Source: Saccharomonospora piscinae (lineage in GTDB: Bacteria; Actinomycetota; Actinomycetes; Mycobacteriales; Pseudonocardiaceae). From it: a stretch of DNA of 64,000 nucleotides. The DNA lies in assembly GCF_005862235.1 (NCBI RefSeq), contig NZ_VCEK01000001.1, forward strand, positions 558,001 to 622,000. The letters run 5' to 3'. Below the pieces are notes generated by a model. It had not been told where the DNA came from, did no database searches, and saw nothing but the letters and a program-made list of their open reading frames with translations. Shown in pieces: positions 4,456 to 38,056 of the stretch. A program made the translations under genes and the position numbers. The first letter of the stretch is position 1. Each line of letters starts with the position of its first letter.

Positions 4456-5385
4456 TCAACGGGGTGAGACCTTGCGTACCCGGTACTCGCAGAAGTCGGC
4501 GACGAACAGATTCCCGTGGGCGTCCGCAACAACGCCGCGTGGATCCAGCGGAATCCCGGTAGCGGGGCCCGATTCCTCTCCGTCGCCCGCGGCACCGTTG
4601 GCGGCGATGGTGCTGATGGTGTTGTCAGTAGCTGAGACCTTGCGCACCCGGCAGGTGTCGGAATCGGCGATATAGAGGTTCCCCTTTCCGTCCACCGCGA
4701 GGCCGATCGGAAAGGTCAAGGTCGCACGATTCGCGGGACCGCCGTCACCGGTCCCGCCCTTGTCCCCCGTGCCTGCGACGGTCGTGATCGTGTTGTCGGC
4801 GGCCGACACCTTCCGCACCCGGTGGGTACCGTTGTCGCCGAAGTAGAGGTTGCCGTCCCCGTCGACCGCCAGGCTGTTCGGATACATGATCTCCGCTTCA
4901 CTGCCCGGCCCGCCGTCGCCGCTGTCGCCTTCCCGCCCCGTGCCGGCCACGGTGGTGATGGTGTTGTCGGTGGCCGAGACCTTCCGCACGCGATGGCTTC
5001 TCGGGTCCGTGACGAAGAGGTTGTCGTGGCCGTCGACCACCACACAGTTCGGCAATCGGAAGTCCGCCTCGGTCGCCGGTCCCCCATCGCCGCTGTCGCC
5101 TTCCCGGCCCGTGCCGGCCACCGTCGTGATTCTGCCGTCGGCAGCCGAAACCTTGCGCACCCGGAAACTGTCCGAATCCGTGATGTAGACGTTCCCGTGC
5201 CGGTCCAGCGCGACGGTCGTCGGGTGCCGCAGCTGCGCTTCGACCGCGGGCCCGCCGTCACCGCTGTCCCCGATCCGCCCGGTACCCGCGACGGTTGTGA
5301 CCGAGCCACCGTCCGACGAGATCCGCTGCACTTGGCGCTGATCCCCGTCGGCGATGTAGAAGTTCCCGTGCTCGTCCACAGCGAG
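4456..5385 (-). repeat. tandem 171-bp coding repeats (NHL units)
   Basis: Six consecutive units of about 57 codons within the NHL gene. The middle units are strongly conserved at DNA level: the codons for AGTGREGDSGDGGP recur almost unchanged in two adjacent units. This suggests expansion by unequal recombination. Confidence 0.7.
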
Positions 5386-5763
5386 GCCCCACGGCCTTCC
5401 GGCGGTGCGCGTAGCGGTCCTGATCGTCCACACCGTCGCCGGTGCGGCGGGATGGTGTGGCGCCGGGCGCGGCGAGGCGTCCCCGTCGATCTCGAACGTG
5501 TCCGGTGACCAGACGCGGCCGGTCGTCCAGGGCCCGGCCTCATCGGGGGCGACGTAACGAGCACGCCACTCGGTCTTGATCGCGGACGCGGCGTACACGT
5601 GGACCAGGTGTTCAGCGCCCTGCACTGCCGCCGGGGACCAATCGCCGTCGACGTACTCCTGCACCTCGGTCGTGCACCCCGGTCGTGGCGGCACCGACAG
5701 AAAGGCCCACCCGGACGTGAACCGGACCCGCAGGCCCTCGGGACGCGGAATCGACACTGGCAC
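4456..5763 (-). CDS. NHL-repeat beta-propeller protein
   Basis: A 435-residue protein. Residues 1 to about 110 form an N-terminal region with beta-type composition (many W, V, T) and no recognised family. Residues from about 128 to the end hold six NHL repeats of about 57 residues, each with a core such as GNLYIAD, then RVRKVSA and TITTVAGTGREGDSGDGGPA. Six repeats would close a six-bladed propeller. No signal peptide or membrane segment is seen. NHL propellers usually mediate protein or ligand binding; some are lyases or lactonases, but no catalytic set is evident. It lies between decayed regions. Confidence 0.85.
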   Translation of the reverse strand: MPVSIPRPEGLRVRFTSGWAFLSVPPRPGCTTEVQEYVDGDWSPAAVQGAEHLVHVYAASAIKTEWRARYVAPDEAGPWTTGRVWSPDTFEIDGDASPRPAPHHPAAPATVWTIRTATRTAGRPWGLAVDEHGNFYIADGDQRQVQRISSDGGSVTTVAGTGRIGDSGDGGPAVEAQLRHPTTVALDRHGNVYITDSDSFRVRKVSAADGRITTVAGTGREGDSGDGGPATEADFRLPNCVVVDGHDNLFVTDPRSHRVRKVSATDNTITTVAGTGREGDSGDGGPGSEAEIMYPNSLAVDGDGNLYFGDNGTHRVRKVSAADNTITTVAGTGDKGGTGDGGPANRATLTFPIGLAVDGKGNLYIADSDTCRVRKVSATDNTISTIAANGAAGDGEESGPATGIPLDPRGVVADAHGNLFVADFCEYRVRKVSPR

Positions 5764-6312
5764 TCCTTCTCGATCGCGGCTAAGAACACCACACCGGTGG
5801 CGAGGTCACGGCGACCGTGCGCCACTGGCATGTGTGTCCGCCCTACCCAGAACATCGGCCGCAGTGAGACTAGAGATCCGCGTCCCGGAAAGGGAGAACG
5901 GTTCACGCGAAGGGGTACGCGGCTATTCGGGTGATCCTTCCTTGACATGCCGCACCGGAGCGCATGGGCCGACATCAACGGCCGAGCCACTGCTCTCGGG
6001 CCTCGTTCTCGGAGAGTTCGGGCGTCGGCGACTCCGGCCGCTCAGCCGGACCGGTCGCGCCCGGCGATATCGGCCTCGACCGCCGCCACAGCCCCTTCCG
6101 GCTCGGCCGAGCATCCCAAGACCAGGCCGTCACAGAGCACCGCACAAGCCTGGGTCGCTGCATTGACCTGTTTCAACGCCGCACGCCGCGACAGTCCACG
6201 ACGCCGCGCGTCGCGCCACACCGCGGGCAGGAGCCACGCCGTGTTGCGGGGATCGACCACGGTGAGAAGAGCCGACCGTCTAGGTATCAGCCGGTTCTCG
6301 TTTGAATACTGT
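5764..6312. other. gene-poor region upstream of the NHL gene
   Basis: Apart from one doubtful short frame (6042-6260, minus), I see no gene. The part next to 5763 should contain the NHL gene promoter, but no clear -35/-10 pair stands out. Confidence 0.4.
6042..6260 (-). CDS. short hypothetical protein or gene fragment
   Basis: An open frame of 72 residues from GTG 6260, beginning VVDPRNTAWLLPAVWRDARR and ending GRDRSG. Its composition looks protein-like: an amphipathic, Arg/Ala-rich helix, then a Cys-containing segment LCDGLVLGCS. The frame stays open upstream as far as 6368, across the repeated tRNA end at 6313. No ribosome binding site precedes the start, so it may be the tail of a gene cut by the insertion. 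No family recognised. Confidence 0.3.
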   Translation of the reverse strand: MVDPRNTAWLLPAVWRDARRRGLSRRAALKQVNAATQACAVLCDGLVLGCSAEPEGAVAAVEADIAGRDRSG

Positions 6313-6327
6313 GAGTGTCCGAGGGGG
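6313..6327. repeat. attL/R-like direct repeat copy (tRNA-Leu 3' end duplicate)
   Basis: GAGTGTCCGAGGGGG, identical to 8537-8551 inside the tRNA-Leu gene. It marks the distal boundary of the inserted segment. Confidence 0.65.
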
Positions 6328-6553
6328 AGTTGCACACTAATAACCACACGGATTCGCCTTCCCGGCATCGGATAAGTCGGAGGGCTTTACTGTCCGGTCT
6401 GTCCCCTCACGGTTCAACCCTGAGACCCTTTGACGAGACAGGGGCCTGTGGCAGCTCTACCTTCTGCTGTGCATCCGGATCGGTGTCAAATCAGCGAGCA
6501 ACTCATGCTGGGTCGAACCGCGGTCGTGCAACGCAGGCGGTCGAATCGTCACG

Positions 6554-8149
6554 TCAGGAGAGCAGACGCATGGCGAGCACGGTTCCATCCGGGTGGACCG
6601 ACACCGGGCCATTCCACGAGACGTTCGAAGAATTGCTGGGCCAGCTGGAGCGGCGCTCGTAGATCTCGCGGCGGTACTGCTCCACCCGTCCTTCGGCCAG
6701 GAGATGGAGCAGGTCGTCCGCTACACCGGAGAAGGCCTCAACCCGGGTCCCGTTCAGTCGGAAGACATGGTCAGTGCCGGTGAATCTGATGCCGAAGAGT
6801 GTGTGGGCCACATCTTGCACGCTGCCGGCTGCCGCATGCGCGAATCCGGTGAAGTTTTTCGCCCCTTGGCGATCGGTCAAGTACTGAGTGGTCGCTCCGC
6901 CGTCGCCTGCGAAAGCTGTCAGTCCAGCGGCGTCCGTGCGAGCGATCACCCGCCTGAACCATTCGTATCGCTCCGGTGTGACGTGAAATCCGGTGACCGA
7001 AGATGGGGGGTTGTCGCTCTCGGTGGGCAGTCGTATTTCGGGGAAGTAGTTCTCATCGCTGAGCTTGACGTCCAGCCCTTCACTCTCGGCGTGCGGCCTG
7101 CTCAGCCAGCCGCCACGTCCGAGGGCGCAGAGTGCGTGGACGGTGACATGGCCGTCGGGCGGCAATTCGGTGCTGAAGATGAACACGGGAGTCTCGTTCC
7201 AAGGCCCGATGTGCACTGTCTCCACATGAGCTGATGCGGAGGCGAGTTGGCTGTAGGAGCGCGCGGCGTTGCTGTGGTTGCCCTTGCAGGCGATCGGGAG
7301 TACCAGGGAAGGCTCCCCCGGCTTCCACAGTTCGGCGAAGTACTGCGGACGGTACGTACCTCGTGCGCTCCAGCCGGCGCTCAGCGTCGTGTCCGCGGGC
7401 ACGATCGAGACGACGCGGTCCGGGTAGCGCTGCGTCAAGACACGCTGCGCTGCCACCAGGGCGAAGCCGATGCCGAGCTCGCGCGACTGGAGGTTCTTGT
7501 AATGCTCCGCCGTCATCTTCCCCTCGGCGGACAACTTCATGAAGGATCTGGTGTCACCGGTCAGCGCCTGGCTGTACTTCAGCGCTCCCCAGTGCTCGGC
7601 GAGTCCACGTGCGGCTCCTCGCCTTGACAGCGCGATGGCCCGGCCGAGCACGTGCAACACGTCCCACGGCGTAATCTCGATGGATCGCCCTCCCCACGCG
7701 GGTACAGGCTTTAGCCCGGGCTTCCGTCGTAAGGCGGTGTCCTTGTCGTCCTTGTCTTTCGTGTCTTTTTCAGCTTGCTTCTTCGCGCGTTGTTCGTCGT
7801 CATGCGCTGCGGCGGTGACCACGGCGCCAACCAGGCTGGAATCAGAGCGAAGAGAGATGTTCGAGTATTGGGCGAGATCTTTCAGCACGTTTGCTGCCGG
7901 CTTCAACACGGTTCTCCCATGGGCCACGAGACGCACTGCACTTGGTACTGCGTGATCGACACCGAGGTGCAACATTACGGTCCTGATCACACGTGCACAT
8001 CCGCGTAACGAGTGATGTGGGGCGAGAGCCCTGTCATGCCACTGACCAGCTGGGGCTTCGGATGACCATCCTCTGGTCGCAAGAAGATCGATAGGTTCAG
8101 GGCTCTGCTCGATCGACTGCCACCTCGGCGCTGACGCGGGCACCAACAC
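6554..8149 (-). CDS. hypothetical protein, cargo of the tRNA-Leu element
   Basis: A 531-residue soluble protein that I do not recognise. An N-terminal region is followed by a highly charged Lys/Asp linker (about residues 118-140, KKQAEKDTKDKDDKDT), then a helical segment and a compact alpha/beta part. That part includes SIVPADTTLSAGW, YFAELWKPG and VLPIACKGNHSNAARS. The spacing of an acidic residue, a Glu and a Lys in this central stretch recalls PD-(D/E)XK nuclease-like folds, but the expected acid before the Lys is replaced (ACK). This is a weak suggestion only. No membrane segment. The atypical composition and att-like flanks suggest horizontal transfer. An anti-phage role is possible but unproven. 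Confidence 0.75.
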   Translation of the reverse strand: MLVPASAPRWQSIEQSPEPIDLLATRGWSSEAPAGQWHDRALAPHHSLRGCARVIRTVMLHLGVDHAVPSAVRLVAHGRTVLKPAANVLKDLAQYSNISLRSDSSLVGAVVTAAAHDDEQRAKKQAEKDTKDKDDKDTALRRKPGLKPVPAWGGRSIEITPWDVLHVLGRAIALSRRGAARGLAEHWGALKYSQALTGDTRSFMKLSAEGKMTAEHYKNLQSRELGIGFALVAAQRVLTQRYPDRVVSIVPADTTLSAGWSARGTYRPQYFAELWKPGEPSLVLPIACKGNHSNAARSYSQLASASAHVETVHIGPWNETPVFIFSTELPPDGHVTVHALCALGRGGWLSRPHAESEGLDVKLSDENYFPEIRLPTESDNPPSSVTGFHVTPERYEWFRRVIARTDAAGLTAFAGDGGATTQYLTDRQGAKNFTGFAHAAAGSVQDVAHTLFGIRFTGTDHVFRLNGTRVEAFSGVADDLLHLLAEGRVEQYRREIYERRSSWPSNSSNVSWNGPVSVHPDGTVLAMRLLS

Positions 8150-8492
8150 GCTAGGAGGCCAAGGAGCACTGTCGCGGACTTGGCCGGGGTCTTGTGCCGC
8201 TGCTACCTCCGACCCATGTAGGAGTACCGCCCGCCGCCTGGCTGAGGGACGGTCGGTGCCGAAAATTTTCGTCGAACCCCGGCTGCGGCGTCACCGAGCT
8301 GTATGCACGGGCCGAACATGCTGCCGCGCGGACCGGAATCGAGGATGCGCCGGCCACCACCAGAGTCACTGACACTGAGAACCGCGCCATGATCGGTCCA
8401 CAGCGGCGATGTCGGGGCTACCCTGGTCGATGTCAGCCAGCCGGACTCAGCCACCTGTATCAGGCGCAACGGCTGAGAACTCGCGATGAAAC
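8150..8492. other. non-coding stretch of the element
   Basis: Between the cargo gene start and the tRNA terminator. Short frames exist on both strands, including one with a signal-like start at 8390 (minus), but none is supported by a ribosome binding site or family resemblance. It probably contains the promoter of the 6554-8149 gene. Confidence 0.35.
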
Positions 8493-8523
8493 AAAAACCG
8501 GCCGCCTACGACGACCGGTTTTT
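8493..8523 (-). terminator. intrinsic terminator of tRNA-Leu
   Basis: AAAAACCGG at 8493-8501 pairs with CCGGTTTTT at 8515-8523. Read on the minus strand it is a hairpin ending in a run of T, 17 bp past the mature tRNA 3' end. Confidence 0.75.
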
Positions 8524-8536
8524 CATCAGACACACA

Positions 8537-8551
8537 GAGTGTCCGAGGGGG
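8537..8551. repeat. att-like direct repeat copy within tRNA-Leu
   Basis: GAGTGTCCGAGGGGG, the tRNA-proximal copy of the repeat found at 6313-6327. It covers the 3' acceptor strand and the start of the T stem. Confidence 0.65.
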
Positions 8552-8623
8552 GACTTGAACCCCCACGCCCTTTACGGGCACTAGCACCTCAAGCTAGCGC
8601 GTCTGCCATTCCGCCACTCGGAC
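8540..8623 (-). tRNA. tRNA-Leu (anticodon GAG)
   Basis: An 84-nt class II tRNA on the minus strand. The acceptor stem GTCCGAG pairs with CTCGGAC and the discriminator is A. The anticodon stem CTAGC/GCTAG carries loop TTGAGGT, giving anticodon GAG. There is a long variable arm (TGCCCGTAAAGGGCG) and a T arm with GGTTCAAGTCC. CCA is not encoded. The 3' end doubles as the attachment-like repeat. Confidence 0.93.
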
Positions 8624-31783: not shown

Positions 31784-33808
31784 GTGCGTACCGTCACCTC
31801 GCTGCCCCACAAGGTCCGCCGGGACGACCATCTCTGGGTCCCGCTGTCGGACGGCACGCGCCTGTCCGCGCGGGTGTGGCGGCCGGACTCGTCCGACGTC
31901 GAGCCGGTACCGGCCGTGCTCGAGTTCCTGCCGTACCGGCTCGGCGATCTGACCGCGCAGCGCGACTCGATCCACCACCCGTACCTCGCGGGCCACGGCT
32001 TCGCCGGCGTGCGTGTGGACCTGCGCGGGAGCGGCGACAGCGACGGCGTCCTCACCGACGAGTACACCGAGCAGGAGCTGCGGGACGGTGAGGAGGTGCT
32101 GGCGTGGCTGGCCGCGCAGCCGTGGTGTGACGGCAACACGGGCATGATGGGTATCTCGTGGGGCGGCTTCAACGCCCTGCAGCTCGCGGCGCGGCGCCCG
32201 CCGAGCCTGCGGGCCATCGCGACGCTCAGCTCCACCGACGACCGCTACGCCGACGACGTGCACTACATGGGTGGCTGCCTGCTGTCGGACAACCTGTCGT
32301 GGGCGTCGACGATGTTCGCCTACAACTCGTGCCCGCCGGACCCGGCCGTGGTGGGACACCGCTGGCGGGCGCTGTGGCGGGACCGGCTCGAAGGCTGCGA
32401 GCCGTGGCTGATCGAGTGGCTGCGGCACCAGCGGCGCGACGAGTACTGGCGGCACGGCTCGGTATGCGAGGACTATTCGGCCGTGGAGTGCGCGGTGCTC
32501 GCCGTCAGCGGCTGGGCCGACGGCTACTCCAACTCGGTGTTCCGTCTGCTGCGGCACCTGAGCGCGCCGAGGCAGGGGCTGATCGGGCCGTGGTCGCACA
32601 AGTATCCGCATCTGGGCAGGCCGGGTCCCGCGATCGGGTTCCTGCAGCAGCTGGTGCGCTGGTGGGAGCACTGGCTGGCCGGTGTGGACAACGGCGTGAT
32701 GGCCGAACCGATGCTGCGGATCTGGATGCAGGAGAGCGCGAAACCGGCCACGGCGTACGAGCAGCGGCCCGGGCGGTGGATCGGCGAGCCCGCGTGGCCG
32801 TCACCGCACGTGGCACCGACCGAACTGACGATGCTGCGCAACCGGCTCGTCACCCGCTCCGACGGCGACGTCCCCGAGGAGGAGCTGACGATCGAGTCGC
32901 CGCTGTCGGTCGGCCAGTTCGCGGGCAAGTGGTGCTCCTACAACGCTCCCCCGGACCTGCCCTACGACCAGCGGGAGGAGGACGGCGGTTCGCTGGTGTT
33001 CGACACCGACGTGCTCACCGACCGCCACGAGGTGCTGGGCTCCCCGGTGGTGAACCTGGAACTGAGCGCCGACCGGCCGAACGCCATGGTGACCGTGCGC
33101 CTGTCGGACGTCGCTCCCGAGGGCAGGGCCACGCGCGTGAGCTACGGCCTGCTCAACCTCACGCACCGCGACGGGCACGACCGCCCCGAGCCGCTGGAGC
33201 CGGGACGACGCTACCGGGTTTCGGTGCCGCTCAACGGTGTGGCGCAGGCGTTTCCCGCCGGGCACCGCATCCGGATCGCGGTGTCGACGTCGTACTGGCC
33301 CCTGGCCTGGCCACCGCCGGAGCCGGTGCGGCTGACCGTGTTCGCGGGCAGCAGTTCGGTGACGCTGCCGCTGCGGCCCGCGCGGGACGGTGAGACCGGG
33401 CCCGAGCCGTTCGACGAGCCGGAGGGAACACCGCCGGTTCCGGTGCAGCGGCTGGAACCGGGTGACGGGGGCTGGACGGTCTCCCGCGACCTGGTCGACT
33501 ACCGCTCGGCGCTCGACGTCGTGAAGGATCTCGGTGTCGTCCGCTTCGACGACACCGGCCTCGACGTGCGCCGCCGCGCCGACGAGCGCTACGAGTGGGT
33601 GGCCGACGACTTCGAGTCCGCGCGCGGCACGGTGGACTGGACCATGCGGTTCACCCGAGGAGACTGGGACGTCCGCACCACCACCCACACCACCCTCTCG
33701 TGTACCCCGACCGAGTTCGTCGTCCACGCCAGGCTGGACGCCTACGAGGGGGAGGTCCGGGTGCTGTCCCGCAACTGGCGTACCGCGATCCCCCGCGATC
33801 ACGTGTGA
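31784..33808 (+). CDS. CocE/NonD family hydrolase (X-prolyl dipeptidyl aminopeptidase fold)
   Basis: A 674-residue three-domain hydrolase. The alpha/beta part has VLEFLPYRLGD, the RVDLRGSGDSDG strand and the nucleophile elbow GISWGGFN. The cap and C-terminal jelly-roll (LSADRPNAMVTVRLSDVAPEG; GHRIRIAVSTSYWPLAW) are complete. The family includes cocaine esterase, acylase and X-Pro dipeptidyl peptidase, and glutaryl amidases. No signal peptide, so cytosolic. The 13-bp spacing from the ATP-grasp gene suggests an operon. The last 10 bp overlap the converging selB. Confidence 0.92.
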   Translation: MRTVTSLPHKVRRDDHLWVPLSDGTRLSARVWRPDSSDVEPVPAVLEFLPYRLGDLTAQRDSIHHPYLAGHGFAGVRVDLRGSGDSDGVLTDEYTEQELRDGEEVLAWLAAQPWCDGNTGMMGISWGGFNALQLAARRPPSLRAIATLSSTDDRYADDVHYMGGCLLSDNLSWASTMFAYNSCPPDPAVVGHRWRALWRDRLEGCEPWLIEWLRHQRRDEYWRHGSVCEDYSAVECAVLAVSGWADGYSNSVFRLLRHLSAPRQGLIGPWSHKYPHLGRPGPAIGFLQQLVRWWEHWLAGVDNGVMAEPMLRIWMQESAKPATAYEQRPGRWIGEPAWPSPHVAPTELTMLRNRLVTRSDGDVPEEELTIESPLSVGQFAGKWCSYNAPPDLPYDQREEDGGSLVFDTDVLTDRHEVLGSPVVNLELSADRPNAMVTVRLSDVAPEGRATRVSYGLLNLTHRDGHDRPEPLEPGRRYRVSVPLNGVAQAFPAGHRIRIAVSTSYWPLAWPPPEPVRLTVFAGSSSVTLPLRPARDGETGPEPFDEPEGTPPVPVQRLEPGDGGWTVSRDLVDYRSALDVVKDLGVVRFDDTGLDVRRRADERYEWVADDFESARGTVDWTMRFTRGDWDVRTTTHTTLSCTPTEFVVHARLDAYEGEVRVLSRNWRTAIPRDHV

Positions 33809-35550
33809 GCGCCGCGCACCGTGCGCCTGCCGTCGGTGTCGCGCCGCGTGTGGCCCTGCGCGTCGAGTAGTTCCAGAAGAGGGACGGCGACGCGGCGGGT
33901 GGTGCCGAGCGCGCGGCGTGCCTCGCTCACGGTGAACGGTTCCGGCAGCCGGGACAGGATCGCGGTCGCCGCCTCGACGGCGTCGGGGCGCGCGACGACG
34001 CCGTCGGCGAGTCGCAGCAGCCGCCCGGCGCGCTCGGCGGCGGCGAGCTGCCGGGGTCCGAGGCCGAGCCCGGCGAGGTCGTGCGCGTCGGGAGCGGCGA
34101 ACGGCTCGCGGGCCAGTCGCCGTTCCACCTCCCGGACGGCGCGCTCGACGGGGGCGGGCAGCGACGGGGCGGCGCCCGCCGGGCGCACGAGGCCATCGCC
34201 CACCACCAGGTCCGTGCGGCCGACGGCGACGGTGACCAGCTCGCCGGGAAGGTCGAGTTCGCGCCGCAGCTCCTCCAGCGCCAGGCCGGGTGACAGCGGG
34301 TCGCGGGCGTGCGCACGTGCCACCGCCTCCCGCGCCCGCGTCGCGGCCTCGTCGAGCAGCCCGTCGGCCACCGCCCAGCGGCCCACCCGCTCACTTGCGT
34401 GCGACTGCCAGCCGAGCGCGCGCAGCTCGTCGAGCGCCACCGCGCCGTGGCGGCGCACGAACGCGGCGGCGGGATCACCGGCGAGTTCCACCGCCCTGGC
34501 CCTGGCCGCGCCCCGGCGCCGCAGCGCGGGCGGGCTCGGGTCGAGCACGTCGACGCCCGCGGGCACGCGGTGCTCACCGGGGTCCCGCACCAGGCCACGA
34601 TCACCGGCGCGCACCGGTAGCGCGCGCGACAGCGACAACCGCACCACGTCAGTCGCGAGTGGACGGACTCGGCAGGCGACGGCGGCGGCGCCGAGATGCA
34701 GCACCAGCTCCCGGTGCAGTTCCCCGGCCTTCGCGCCCCGCAGCCGCACGTCCAGCTCGTCGATATGGCGCCACCGGCCCGGTGTCAGCAGGGTGTCGCC
34801 GCGGCTGAGATCGTGGCGATCGAGGCCGCGCAGGTTCACCGCGACCCTGGCCACGGCGGCGACGGCCGCGCTCGGGCGGCCGAGCGATTCCAGTCCCCTC
34901 ACCACGCACCGGCGGCCCGAACGGCCGAGCACGAGTTCGTCGCCCACCCGCAGGGTTCCCGCGCCGAGTGTCCCGGTGACCACGGTGCCCGCGCCCCGGA
35001 CGCTGAACGCCCTGTCGATCCACAACCGGACGTCGGCGCCGGTGTCGGGCACGGGCAGCCGGTCGCCCAGCGCGGCGAGTTCGGCCCGCAGCGCGGCGAG
35101 TCCCCGCCCCGAGCGCACGCTGACCGCGACGGCGGACACCCGGCCGAGGCTCGTGAGTGCCAGCCGCTCCCCCGCGTCCGCGAGCACGGGCCCGGGGTCG
35201 GCGCGGTCGGCCTTGGTGACCACCAGCAGGCCGTGCCGGACGCCGAGCGCGTCGAGTGCGGCGAGATGCTCGGTGGACTGGGCCTGCCAGCCCTCGTCGG
35301 CCGCCACCACGAACAGCACGGCCGCGACCGGCCCGGTACCGGCGAGCATCGTCGGCACGAACCGCCGGTGTCCCGGAACGTCGACGAACGCGAACGTCCG
35401 CTCCCGCACTTGCGTCCACACGAACCCGAGCTCGACGGTGAGTCCCCGGCGGCGTTCCTCCGCGAGCCGGTCGGGTTCCATCCCGGTCAGCGCCCGCACG
35501 AGCGTGGACTTGCCGTGGTCGACGTGACCCGCGGTGGCTAGGACGTGCAT
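33799..35550 (-). CDS. selB: selenocysteine-specific elongation factor SelB
   Basis: A 583-residue GTPase. G1 is AGHVDHGKSTL near the N-terminus, DVPGHRRFVPTML is G3, and VTKADRADPGP is G4, each recognisable. EF-Tu-like domains 2 and 3 (SVRGAGTVVTGTLGAGTL) follow, then C-terminal winged helices that bind the SECIS hairpin. It delivers Sec-tRNA(Sec) to UGA in the fdhA message. ATG 35550 is chosen because the GTPase motif follows immediately. The start overlaps selA by 13 bp (selA-selB operon). The 3' end overlaps the convergent CocE gene by 10 bp. Confidence 0.95.
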   Translation of the reverse strand: MHVLATAGHVDHGKSTLVRALTGMEPDRLAEERRRGLTVELGFVWTQVRERTFAFVDVPGHRRFVPTMLAGTGPVAAVLFVVAADEGWQAQSTEHLAALDALGVRHGLLVVTKADRADPGPVLADAGERLALTSLGRVSAVAVSVRSGRGLAALRAELAALGDRLPVPDTGADVRLWIDRAFSVRGAGTVVTGTLGAGTLRVGDELVLGRSGRRCVVRGLESLGRPSAAVAAVARVAVNLRGLDRHDLSRGDTLLTPGRWRHIDELDVRLRGAKAGELHRELVLHLGAAAVACRVRPLATDVVRLSLSRALPVRAGDRGLVRDPGEHRVPAGVDVLDPSPPALRRRGAARARAVELAGDPAAAFVRRHGAVALDELRALGWQSHASERVGRWAVADGLLDEAATRAREAVARAHARDPLSPGLALEELRRELDLPGELVTVAVGRTDLVVGDGLVRPAGAAPSLPAPVERAVREVERRLAREPFAAPDAHDLAGLGLGPRQLAAAERAGRLLRLADGVVARPDAVEAATAILSRLPEPFTVSEARRALGTTRRVAVPLLELLDAQGHTRRDTDGRRTVRGAHT

Positions 35551-36839
35551 CGCGCCACGGCCTCCACCAGCCGGTCGTCCGAGGCGGCCACCACCGTGCG
35601 CAGGTCGAGCAGGCACCGGCCCCGCTCGACGCGGCCGACCACGGCGGGACGCCCGTGCCGCAGCAGGACCGCGTACTCCTCAGGCAGGCTCACGGCCGCG
35701 CTGGGCAGCTCCACCTCCGGCGCCCCGCCACCCCCCACGGCGGCGACCGACGGGACGGCCACGGCGTCGACGCCGCGCCGGCTCAGCGTCTCGGCGACTC
35801 GCTCGGCGCGGGACCGCACCGTGCCGGGATCGGCGTCCAGAAACGCCCGCACCGGCGGCGCCGGTCCGCGCACGGTCGCCTCCAGCGCGGCGAGCGTGAG
35901 CTTGTCGACGCGCAACGCCCGCGCCGCCGGATGCCGCCGCAGCCGGTGAAGCAGGCCGTGCTCGCCGAACAGCAGGCCCGCCTGCGGGCCACCGAGCAGC
36001 TTGTCCCCGCTGGCGGTGACGAGGTCGGCACCGGCGGCGAGCGCACTCGCGGCGTCGGGCTCGCCGGGCAGCGCGGGATGCGGGCGCAACAGCCCGGAGC
36101 CGATGTCGGCCACCACGGCGACGCCGAGCCGCGCGAGGTCCGCGATCGGCACGGTGGACGTGAACCCGCTGACGACGTAGTTCGACGGGTGAACCTTCAA
36201 CACGAAGCCGGTGTCGGGCCCGATCGCGTCGGCGTAGTCGGCCAGGTGGGTACGGTTCGTGGTCCCGACCTCGCGCAGCCGCGCGCCCGCCGAGGTGACC
36301 AAGTCGGGGATGCGGAACGAGTCGCCGATCTCGACCAGCTCGCCCCGGCTGATCACAATCTCCTTGCCCGGCGCCAGTGTCAGCGCGCAGAGCAGCAGCG
36401 CGGCGGCGTTGTTGTTGACCACGTGGACGCCGTCGGGCCCGCCCGCCTCCGGCAGCGCCTCGGCGAGCGCCGCGAGCGTGCCCCTGCCCCGCCGGGCGCG
36501 CCTGCCGTCGGTGAGGTCGAACTCGACGTCGGTGCTGCCACCGGCCTCGGCCACCGCGCGCACGGCGGCGGCCGAGAGCGGCGCGCGCCCCAGATTGGTA
36601 TGCACCACGATTCCGGTCGCGTTGACGACCTCGCGCAACGACGACGCCGAGGACGGCAGCGAGGCCACTGCCTCGTCCGCCACCGCCTCCGGGGCCAGCT
36701 CACCGGAACGGGCACGCTCCTGCGCGGCGGCGACGACGGCCTTCACCACGCCCCGCCCGAGGTCGTCGGCCGCCTTGGCCAGCCGGGGGTCGGCCAGCAG
36801 CAGGTCGGTCCGCGGGATGCGCCTGCGCGCGTCACCCAC
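35538..36839 (-). CDS. selA: L-seryl-tRNA(Sec) selenium transferase SelA
   Basis: A 433-residue PLP enzyme that converts Ser-tRNA(Sec) to Sec-tRNA(Sec) with selenophosphate. The N-terminus is GDARRRIPRTDLLLADPRL. The PLP-binding lysine is in TASGDKLLGGPQAGLL, with HTNLGRAPL and VVNNNAAALLL as earlier family motifs. GTG 36839 is favoured because it leaves the tRNA-Sec gene (which ends at 36869) intact; 36848 is an alternative. It follows tRNA-Sec by about 30 nt on the same strand and is coupled to selB downstream. Confidence 0.94.
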   Translation of the reverse strand: MGDARRRIPRTDLLLADPRLAKAADDLGRGVVKAVVAAAQERARSGELAPEAVADEAVASLPSSASSLREVVNATGIVVHTNLGRAPLSAAAVRAVAEAGGSTDVEFDLTDGRRARRGRGTLAALAEALPEAGGPDGVHVVNNNAAALLLCALTLAPGKEIVISRGELVEIGDSFRIPDLVTSAGARLREVGTTNRTHLADYADAIGPDTGFVLKVHPSNYVVSGFTSTVPIADLARLGVAVVADIGSGLLRPHPALPGEPDAASALAAGADLVTASGDKLLGGPQAGLLFGEHGLLHRLRRHPAARALRVDKLTLAALEATVRGPAPPVRAFLDADPGTVRSRAERVAETLSRRGVDAVAVPSVAAVGGGGAPEVELPSAAVSLPEEYAVLLRHGRPAVVGRVERGRCLLDLRTVVAASDDRLVEAVARCTS

Positions 36840-36868
36840 GGCCACCACCCCGGGCGAGGGCGGATCGG

Positions 36869-36960
36869 CGGAGGCGAACGGGAATCGAACCCGCCAACGA
36901 CGGTGTCCGCCGTTCAACGGTTTTGAAGACCGTGCCGGTCACCAGGCCGGAAGCGCCTCC
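36869..36960 (-). tRNA. selC: selenocysteine tRNA (anticodon UCA)
   Basis: A 92-nt tRNA on the minus strand beginning GGAGGCG and ending CGCCTCC plus discriminator G, followed by CCG and not CCA. The anticodon stem ACGGT/ACCGT carries loop CTTCAAA (anticodon TCA). A long variable arm (AACGGCG paired with CGTCGTT) and the extended acceptor/T arrangement (GGTTCGATTCC) mark tRNA-Sec. It sits immediately upstream of selA. Confidence 0.95.
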
Positions 36961-37054
36961 CTGGGACATACGGCCATCCTGCCAGCAAGATTCACGGCAC
37001 GCAGCACACGAACGGGCGCCTGCGGCCCCGGCCGGGCGGGGGCAGCATGGGGAC

Positions 37055-38056
37055 ATGGCTCACCGACTCACGCAGTACGCGCACGGTGGCGGCTGTGCGT
37101 GCAAGATCCCACCGGGCGAGCTGGAGGAGGTCGTACGTGGCCTCACCGGCGACGGCGCGCCCGTGCCCACCTCGCCCCCGGGGGAGCTGCTGGTGGGACT
37201 GCACGACGGGGACGACGCCGCGGCCGTGCGCCTGGACGGCGAGCAGGCCGTCGTCGCCACCACCGACTTCTTCACCCCGGTCGTGGACGACGCCTACGAC
37301 TGGGGCCGGATCGCCGCCACCAACGCGCTGTCGGACGTGTACGCGATGGGGGGCACGCCGCTGGTGGCGTTGAACCTGCTGTGCTGGCCGAGGGAGACAC
37401 TGCCGTTCGAGCTGGCCGCGGAGGTGCTGCGGGGCGGCGCCGAGGTGTGCGCGCGCGCCGGGTGCCATCTCGCAGGTGGGCACAGCGTCGACGATCCCGA
37501 ACCGAAGTACGGGCTGGCCGTCACGGGCCTGGCCTCGGCGTCCACGCTCCTGCGCAACGACACGGGCCGCCCGGGCATGCCGCTGTCGCTGACGAAACCG
37601 CTGGGAATCGGGGTTCTGAACACGCGGCACAAGGCCACCGGCGAGTCGTTCGGCGAGGCCGTCGAGGTGATGACGACGCTCAACGACACGGCCGCGCGGG
37701 CGGCCGTCGCGGCGGGGCACCGCTGCGCCACCGACGTCACCGGCTTCGGCCTGCTCGGGCACCTGTTCAAGCTGGCGAGGGCCAGCGGGGTGTCGGCGGT
37801 GCTCGACGCGGCGGCGGTGCCCGTGCTCGACGCCGCGCGTGCGGCCGTGCGCGACGGGTACGTCTCCGGCGGAACCCGCCGCAACCTGGACTGGGTCCGC
37901 CCGCACACGGAGCTGACCGGCATCGCCGAGGACACGGCGTTGCTGCTCGCCGACGCGCAGACCTCGGGCGGGCTGCTGGTGGCCGGAGAGATCCCCGGCG
38001 CCGCCGTGGTGGGTGAACTGGTGCCGCGCGGCGAGCACGCCGTGGTGGTGCGGTGA
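37055..38056 (+). CDS. selD: selenide, water dikinase SelD
   Basis: A 333-residue ATP-dependent enzyme that makes selenophosphate from selenide. The catalytic N-terminal motif GGGCACKIPP contains the usual Cys and Lys, so this copy is the cysteine form and not a selenoprotein. TTDFFTPVVDDAYDWG and AGGHSVDDPEPKYGLAV are PurM-like ATP/Mg-binding segments. ATG 37055 is the family start. It is divergent from the tRNA-Sec/selA/selB unit, with a 94-bp intergenic region that must contain both promoters. Confidence 0.95.
   Translation: MAHRLTQYAHGGGCACKIPPGELEEVVRGLTGDGAPVPTSPPGELLVGLHDGDDAAAVRLDGEQAVVATTDFFTPVVDDAYDWGRIAATNALSDVYAMGGTPLVALNLLCWPRETLPFELAAEVLRGGAEVCARAGCHLAGGHSVDDPEPKYGLAVTGLASASTLLRNDTGRPGMPLSLTKPLGIGVLNTRHKATGESFGEAVEVMTTLNDTAARAAVAAGHRCATDVTGFGLLGHLFKLARASGVSAVLDAAAVPVLDAARAAVRDGYVSGGTRRNLDWVRPHTELTGIAEDTALLLADAQTSGGLLVAGEIPGAAVVGELVPRGEHAVVVR

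What the first reader, a model, noticed from the sequence alone, without database searches (positions are those of the whole stretch)
6313..8551. Single-gene insert bounded by a 15-bp copy of the tRNA-Leu 3' end
Seen: GAGTGTCCGAGGGGG occurs at 6313-6327 and at 8537-8551, the second inside the 3' end of tRNA-Leu(GAG). Between them lies one long lower-GC gene and no integrase. Known: tyrosine recombinases integrate at tRNA 3' ends and leave such repeats. Inference: a compact or decayed mobile element, or cargo moved in trans.
Basis: partly seen in the sequence, partly recalled or inferred. Interest (0 to 1): 0.75.

Follow-up and report, generated by a model that had tools for sequence, protein, structure and literature searches.

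The report
Stranded end of a tRNA-targeting island
A small DNA insert next to a leucine tRNA gene is the leftover end of a mobile island that a serine-type integrase places at that tRNA in many related soil bacteria; it still carries one uncharacterised gene whose relatives usually sit beside antiviral defence genes.

Summary
GAGTGTCCGAGGGGG occurs exactly twice in the 4.9-Mb genome: in the 3' end of tRNA-Leu(GAG) and 2.2 kb downstream. The far copy is the core of a conserved island right end, CGTGTGGTTAGTGYGCAACTC-N3/4-CTCGGACAC. A core pattern of this end occurs in 51 of 299 Pseudonocardiaceae genomes and never in the reversed control.

The integrase of these islands is a large serine recombinase, not a tyrosine recombinase. 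In at least 22 genomes it lies immediately downstream of tRNA-Leu(GAG), convergent with it, and in LSR1-type islands its last codons overlap the tRNA 3' end. The islands form tandem arrays; 11 of 28 mapped units have no integrase. G000 itself has no PF07508 recombinase.

The window's insert is best read as a deletion derivative (CIME-like): one gene plus the right end, with the integrase and true left end lost. The gene was acquired horizontally: it is closer to Saccharopolyspora/Amycolatopsis copies than to congeneric ones. It is a new 451-aa family, probably PD-(D/E)XK-like, repeatedly adjacent to Wadjet and helicase defence genes. Defence function and mobility are untested.

The parts
8539..8623 (-). 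tRNA-Leu(GAG), the integration target (attB)
   Evidence: ARAGORN, Rfam RF00005
8537..8551 (.). 15-bp core copy in the tRNA 3' end (tRNA-side att)
   Evidence: only two copies in the genome
6313..6327 (.). 15-bp core copy at the far end
6315..6350 (-). Right end of the island (attR): conserved arm CGTGTGGTTA(TTA)GTGTGCAACTC plus core CCCCTCGGACAC, with a 3-base insertion relative to the consensus
   Evidence: consensus from 33 sites; 0 hits in reversed control; alignment with S. spinosa
6554..7909 (-). Single gene: 451-aa protein of a new family, PD-(D/E)XK-like by topology, with P188-Q189 and A-C-K-G in place of PD...(D/E)XK
   Evidence: no hits in Pfam, NCBIfam, PADLOC or PHROGs; alignment of 33 homologs; AlphaFold pLDDT 86.4, pTM 0.90
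7910..8026 (-). Upstream region of the gene conserved between genera (promoter or leader), contains CATCACTCGTTRCGCGGA
   Evidence: nucleotide homology of other homolog loci also ends at 8019-8026; sequences
8027..8487 (.). Stretch without homologs among the compared loci; presumed site of the deletion that removed the left end and integrase
   Evidence: no match among loci compared; no LSR remnant in six frames
8488..8538 (-). tRNA-proximal hairpin/terminator shared with congeners
   Evidence: blast match to tRNA loci of G001, G003, G004, G009 extends to 8488-8493; sequences
6023..6266 (-). Remnant (3' part) of a host gene cut off 48 bp beyond the att core
   Evidence: 92% to G006:C141 and 80-82% to other congeners, all but one match ending at the same base 6266

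Best explanation
The 2.2-kb segment is a decayed, CIME-like derivative of an integrative island inserted at the 3' end of tRNA-Leu(GAG). The islands use a large serine recombinase (LSR) encoded next to the tRNA; crossover in the shared core rebuilds the tRNA 3' end and leaves an attR made of the island's own arm (CGTGTGGTTAGTGYGCAACTC) and the core. New islands integrate at existing att copies, giving tandem arrays whose older units lose integrase and transfer genes but keep their ends and cargo. In this genome the integrase, left end and other genes are gone; one cargo gene and attR remain. Shown: core pair, shared right end, LSR/tRNA adjacency in other genomes, arrays, integrase-less units, discordant ancestry of the gene. 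Inferred: that this LSR family made this insert, that a deletion at 8027-8487 removed the left part, and that the gene is a defence-associated PD-(D/E)XK-like protein.
For: Core unique to two places in the genome. Right-end core pattern in 51/299 family genomes, 0 in reversed control; by my count, where att and tRNA-Leu(GAG) lie on one contig within 200 kb, 22 of 23 are co-oriented and downstream of the tRNA. Arm conserved over 33 sites. LSR (PF00239+PF07508+PF13408) directly downstream of and convergent with tRNA-Leu(GAG) in at least 22 genomes; LSR1 ends in VRGGT* encoded by the antisense of the tRNA end. Intact arrangement tRNA-LSR-gene in G023, and att-LSR-gene-Wadjet-att in A. taiwanensis. 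The same gene as a 2.2-kb two-ended unit inside an array in S. spinosa. Left end identical from the core outward between S. spinosa and S. indica although one abuts another island and the other the tRNA; right end shared between window and S. spinosa up to the core, then diverging. Gene dS to S. spinosa 0.36 but 0.85-0.90 to congeners, whereas the M20 gene gives 0.43-0.47 to congeners and 0.54 to S. indica; tree places it with Saccharopolyspora copies, SH-aLRT 88-90. No PF07508 protein in G000, so the integrase is lost rather than overlooked.
Against: No close relative with the same far flank and a single core copy was found. The DNA next to the tRNA (8488-8538) is shared with congeners, so the present structure is not a simple fresh insertion. 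The window's attR has a 3-base insertion in the arm. None of the 12 genomes of the genus has this LSR at E<=1e-30. LSR specificity is inferred from adjacency only. Gene calling in the arrays used a home-made codon-bias method.
Confidence: 0.8

Rival explanations
1. A genuinely compact non-autonomous element: one cargo gene between two functional att ends, moved in trans (or in tandem, in cis) by serine integrases of resident or incoming islands, like a serine-integrase gene cassette.
For: S. spinosa carries the same gene as a precise two-ended 2.2-kb unit and S. indica has the same left end at the tRNA; 11 of 28 units have no LSR; a 180-bp unit with both ends exists in G137.
Against: In the window the left end is not that of the S. 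spinosa/S. indica unit, the arm carries an insertion, and G000 has no LSR. The S. indica copy looks damaged in its N-terminal part. CIMEs are held to move in cis by accretion (PMC7563491).
Confidence: 0.25
2. Remnant of a tyrosine-integrase element at the tRNA 3' end.
For: Most actinomycete AICEs use tyrosine integrases at tRNA 3' ends (PMC3218068).
Against: The islands with this exact right end carry LSRs abutting the tRNA; the tyrosine recombinases near the S. spinosa array lie outside the att-bounded units.
Confidence: 0.05
3. Chance repeat beside a locally rearranged, low-GC gene; no integration.
For: Flanks are rearranged and no empty site was found.
Against: Exact 15-mer found only twice in 4.9 Mb; extended arm conserved across genera in the same position and orientation; gene phylogeny discordant.
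Confidence: 0.02

Closest known systems
CIMEs (cis-mobilizable elements) and microCIMEs, described for streptococcal ICEs (PMC5704250, PMC7563491)
   Same: Decayed elements keeping att ends and cargo but no recombination or transfer genes, in tandem with full elements at one target gene; classical CIMEs 1.2-13 kb, microCIMEs 130-220 bp.
   Different: Here the att belongs to a serine integrase and a tRNA-Leu gene in actinomycetes; the window copy has lost its left end; several units carry defence genes.
AICEs with serine recombinases in a tRNA-Leu gene of Mycobacterium (Ghinet et al. 2011, PMC3218068)
   Same: Serine recombinase using a tRNA-Leu gene, called rare there; AICE-like islands with an FtsK/TraB-type protein.
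   Different: Pseudonocardiaceae hosts, long arrays, integrase-less units; I did not compare the recombinases or att sequences directly.
AICE accretion at tRNA-Arg in Streptomyces (PMC9513070)
   Same: Several elements and remnants stacked at one tRNA between direct repeats.
   Different: That tRNA and those elements are other families.
Wadjet and PDC-S37/Mokosh-like helicase defence systems (PADLOC)
   Same: Neighbours of the gene in several genomes.
   Different: The window has the lone gene without them; it is not a listed component.

Membership tests
CIME | Flanked by attL and attR of an ICE/IME family | tested here: inconclusive
   attR met; tRNA core met; the element's own left end not identified, tRNA-proximal DNA shared with congeners
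CIME | No recombination, mobilization or transfer genes | tested here: met
   one gene only, no family hits; no PF07508 in genome, nearest PF00589 about 144 kb away
CIME | Derived from a larger island with the same att | tested here: met
   LSR-bearing islands with the same right end; tRNA-LSR-gene in G023 and LSR-gene-Wadjet in A. taiwanensis
CIME | Mobilization after accretion | not testable with these tools
   needs experiment
AICE | Integrase, replication initiator and TraB/FtsK in one att-bounded unit | tested here: not met
   absent from the window insert; related islands have an LSR and a 711-aa protein with weak FtsK/TraB matches, but no replication protein was recognised
Tyrosine-integrase tRNA island | Cognate tyrosine integrase beside the att in related intact elements | tested here: not met
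   LSR instead
PD-(D/E)XK nucleases (for the gene) | alpha-beta-beta-beta-alpha-beta core | tested here: inconclusive
   secondary structure at 135-248 fits by eye; Foldseek finds no match at E<=0.001 in PDB or BFVD, best viral hits UL24 at E 0.085
PD-(D/E)XK nucleases (for the gene) | PD...(D/E)XK residues | tested here: not met
   window has PQ...ACK; several distant homologs have PD...ECK
Known anti-phage systems | Match to PADLOC models | tested here: not met
   no hit for the gene; neighbours of homologs match JetA/C/D, PDC-S37 and MkoA/MkoC

The most novel reading that the evidence does not exclude
tRNA-Leu(GAG) in Pseudonocardiaceae works as a serine-integrase counterpart of an integron: single defence genes or systems, each closed by one conserved half-site, are added, stacked and exchanged at the tRNA by integrases supplied by other units, so that many cassettes need no integrase of their own; and the gene here is a new defence effector or regulator distributed by this route.
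Probability: 0.15. Interest if true: 0.8.

Novelty: new variant of a known kind. Interest (0 to 1): 0.5.

Why it matters
Serine-recombinase integration at tRNA genes has been called rare, yet one tRNA-Leu gene in this family is a hotspot of such islands, with a defined right-end sequence that lets islands, stacked arrays and integrase-less remnants be found and delimited by sequence alone. Some of the cargo looks like anti-phage defence (Wadjet, helicase systems) and includes an undescribed protein family that keeps company with different defence systems. The integrases and their short att sites could also be useful for genome engineering.

Tried and rejected
Tyrosine integrase next to the insert: none. 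LSR remnant in 8100-8560: none seen in six frames. Empty site in congeners: the far flank (6266 and beyond) is not collinear with the tRNA loci of relatives, so no clean empty site; only a 244-bp gene remnant could be placed. Known protein families, PDB sequences and fold searches gave nothing significant for the gene. Plain 21-mer matching of the right-end arm in the window fails because of the TTA insertion; the match is seen only in alignment. The tRNA-Arg call in the S. spinosa locus lies inside the helicase ORF and was taken as false. The sigma-70 promoter scan was empty, not informative for actinomycetes.

Full report
OBSERVATION. The two 15-mers are exactly where reported and are the only copies, even with one mismatch, in the 4.9-Mb genome. 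One is the 3' end of tRNA-Leu(GAG). The gene between them runs on the minus strand from GTG at 7909 to 6554, 451 aa. GC3 is 77% against 96% for the neighbouring M20 peptidase gene.

THE FAR COPY IS AN ISLAND RIGHT END. In Saccharopolyspora spinosa (L023) the same gene is followed by the same 230-250 bp and ends in the same sequence up to CTCGGACAC, after which the two genomes diverge. The S. spinosa locus holds further copies of this end in tandem. Oriented like the tRNA, the end reads CGTGTGGTTAGTGYGCAACTC-N3/4-CTCGGACAC. A 16-base pattern from it was found in 51 of 299 Pseudonocardiaceae genomes, with none in the reversed control, and in only 4 genomes from other families in a sample of 220 from the order. 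By my count, of 23 sites on the same contig as, and within 200 kb of, a listed tRNA-Leu(GAG), 22 lie downstream of it in the same orientation. Over 33 mapped sites most positions of the arm are nearly invariant. The window's copy has a TTA insertion after GTGTGGTTA and otherwise matches.

THE INTEGRASE. In Amycolatopsis taiwanensis the tRNA is followed by a 586-aa protein, and the next att by a 460-aa protein, both on the opposite strand. Both have the large-serine-recombinase (LSR) domain set PF00239, PF07508 and PF13408. Searching 299 genomes with the second one gave hits in 140, and comparison with the tRNA positions shows the gene directly downstream of and convergent with tRNA-Leu(GAG) in at least 22: G023, G024, G076, G088, G108, G122, G132, G135, G177, G211, G213, G237, G242, G244, G250, G260, G266, G294, G295, G326, G327, G331. 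In the first type (LSR1) the last codons, VRGGT-stop, are the antisense of the tRNA 3' end, so integration also completes the integrase reading frame. None of the 12 genomes in the window's genus has this LSR at E<=1e-30, and G000 has no PF07508 protein at all.

ARRAYS AND INTEGRASE-LESS UNITS. Mapping 28 att-bounded units: 12 hold a full or nearly full LSR, 5 a fragment, 11 none. LSR1 units of 8-28 kb carry an AICE-like set including a 711-aa protein with weak FtsK/TraB matches (no replication protein was recognised). Others are small: LSR plus two genes (3.7 kb, G091), a Vsr endonuclease unit (3.5 kb, G091; Vsr), the single-gene unit of S. spinosa (2.2 kb), and a 180-bp unit with both ends (G137). 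Cargo is not only defence: G233 and G107 share a unit whose genes look like a carotenoid-type pathway (by eye, not tested).

WHERE THE GENE SITS. Intact arrangement: tRNA, LSR, gene in G023 (L083); att, LSR, gene, Wadjet II, att in A. taiwanensis. Without LSR: S. spinosa unit, S. indica beside the tRNA, and the window. S. spinosa and S. indica share the left end from the core outward for about 350 bp although one follows another island's right end and the other the tRNA: direct evidence for a unit with fixed ends. In G303 and G265 the gene lies 1.4-1.5 kb before a degenerate att followed by an LSR fragment.

HISTORY OF THE WINDOW COPY. The gene's synonymous distance is 0.36 to S. spinosa but 0.85-0.90 to the three congeners that have it, while the M20 gene beside the tRNA shows 0.43-0.47 to congeners and 0.54 to S. 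indica; the tree agrees. So it came from outside the genus. But the 51 bases after the tRNA (8488-8538) match congeners, the stretch 8027-8487 matched none of the compared loci, and the far flank begins with a 3'-terminal remnant of a gene that is longer elsewhere in the genus (6023-6266). The simplest inferred path is accretion of an island downstream of older DNA at the tRNA, then a deletion taking the left end and integrase. The pairwise dN/dS of 0.24-0.32 shows constraint on the family as a whole, not specifically on this copy.

THE GENE PRODUCT. No hit in Pfam, NCBIfam, PADLOC or PHROGs or PDB sequences. AlphaFold gives a confident model (pLDDT 86.4, pTM 0.90). Residues 135-248 run helix, strand, strand, strand, helix, strand, and several distant homologs carry PD on the second strand and ECK on the third, the pattern of PD-(D/E)XK nucleases; the window's clade has PQ and ACK. 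Foldseek found nothing significant; the best viral hits are UL24 proteins at E 0.085, a group I recall as PD-(D/E)XK-like (own knowledge). In the close clade the neighbours are Wadjet I (G001, G005, G003), Wadjet II (A. taiwanensis), caspase-helicase (G023) and PDC-S37-type helicases with a 280-308-aa companion (S. spinosa, Streptomyces). G003's Wadjet and G023's helicase assignments are by reading the sequence, the others by profile. Defence association is therefore well supported, defence activity is not tested, and the window's copy may be catalytically dead.

PRIOR WORK. Decayed att-bounded elements are known as CIMEs and microCIMEs (PMC5704250; PMC7563491). Stacking of AICEs at a tRNA is known in Streptomyces (PMC9513070). 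Serine-recombinase AICEs in a tRNA-Leu gene are known in Mycobacterium and were called rare (PMC3218068). My literature search was limited to open papers and found no description of this Pseudonocardiaceae system; absence of a hit is weak evidence of novelty.

LIMITS. Genes in arrays were called with a simple codon-bias method. Only the best matches of large searches were listed, so counts are lower bounds. LSR specificity is inferred from adjacency. Some unit boundaries may hide degenerate att sites.

Noticed in passing
G293:C1:803942-910230 (L213-L216): Six perfect right-end sites in one orientation over 106 kb, spaced 7-58 kb: the longest array seen, cargo largely metabolic or transport by eye.
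   Followed up: partly
L219 (G137:C147), tRNA 6104-6128 to att 6276-6307 in reverse orientation: A unit of about 180 bp with both ends and no gene (microCIME size) directly after tRNA-Leu(GAG).
   Followed up: no
L217 (G079:C1:1078000-1097900): Two divergent tRNA-Leu(GAG) copies about 1.7 kb apart, each with its own att-bounded island; G139 and G112 have the same tRNA pair.
   Followed up: no
L228/L229 (G233) and L231/L232 (G107): Same att-bounded unit start with a carotenoid-type gene set shared by two genomes; integrase absent.
   Followed up: no
L100:8745-10502 and other LSR1 loci: The integrase's last codons (VRGGT*) are supplied by the antisense of the tRNA 3' end, so its C-terminus should change on excision.
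   Followed up: partly
L023:2411-3337 and L029:7086-7928: Unnamed 280-308-aa protein next to PDC-S37-type helicases, no Pfam or PADLOC match; possible second component of that candidate system.
   Followed up: no
L097 (G061:C1:827878-832916): Three neighbouring tyrosine recombinases about 5 kb beyond the S. spinosa array; two neighbouring ones also near the gene homolog in G066.
   Followed up: no
window 33799-38056: Selenocysteine cluster: selB, selA, tRNA-Sec (36867-36960) and selD by sequence reading; ordinary.
   Followed up: partly
window 4456-5763: NHL-repeat beta-propeller protein gene beyond the far flank of the insert; not conserved at the tRNA loci of congeners.
   Followed up: no
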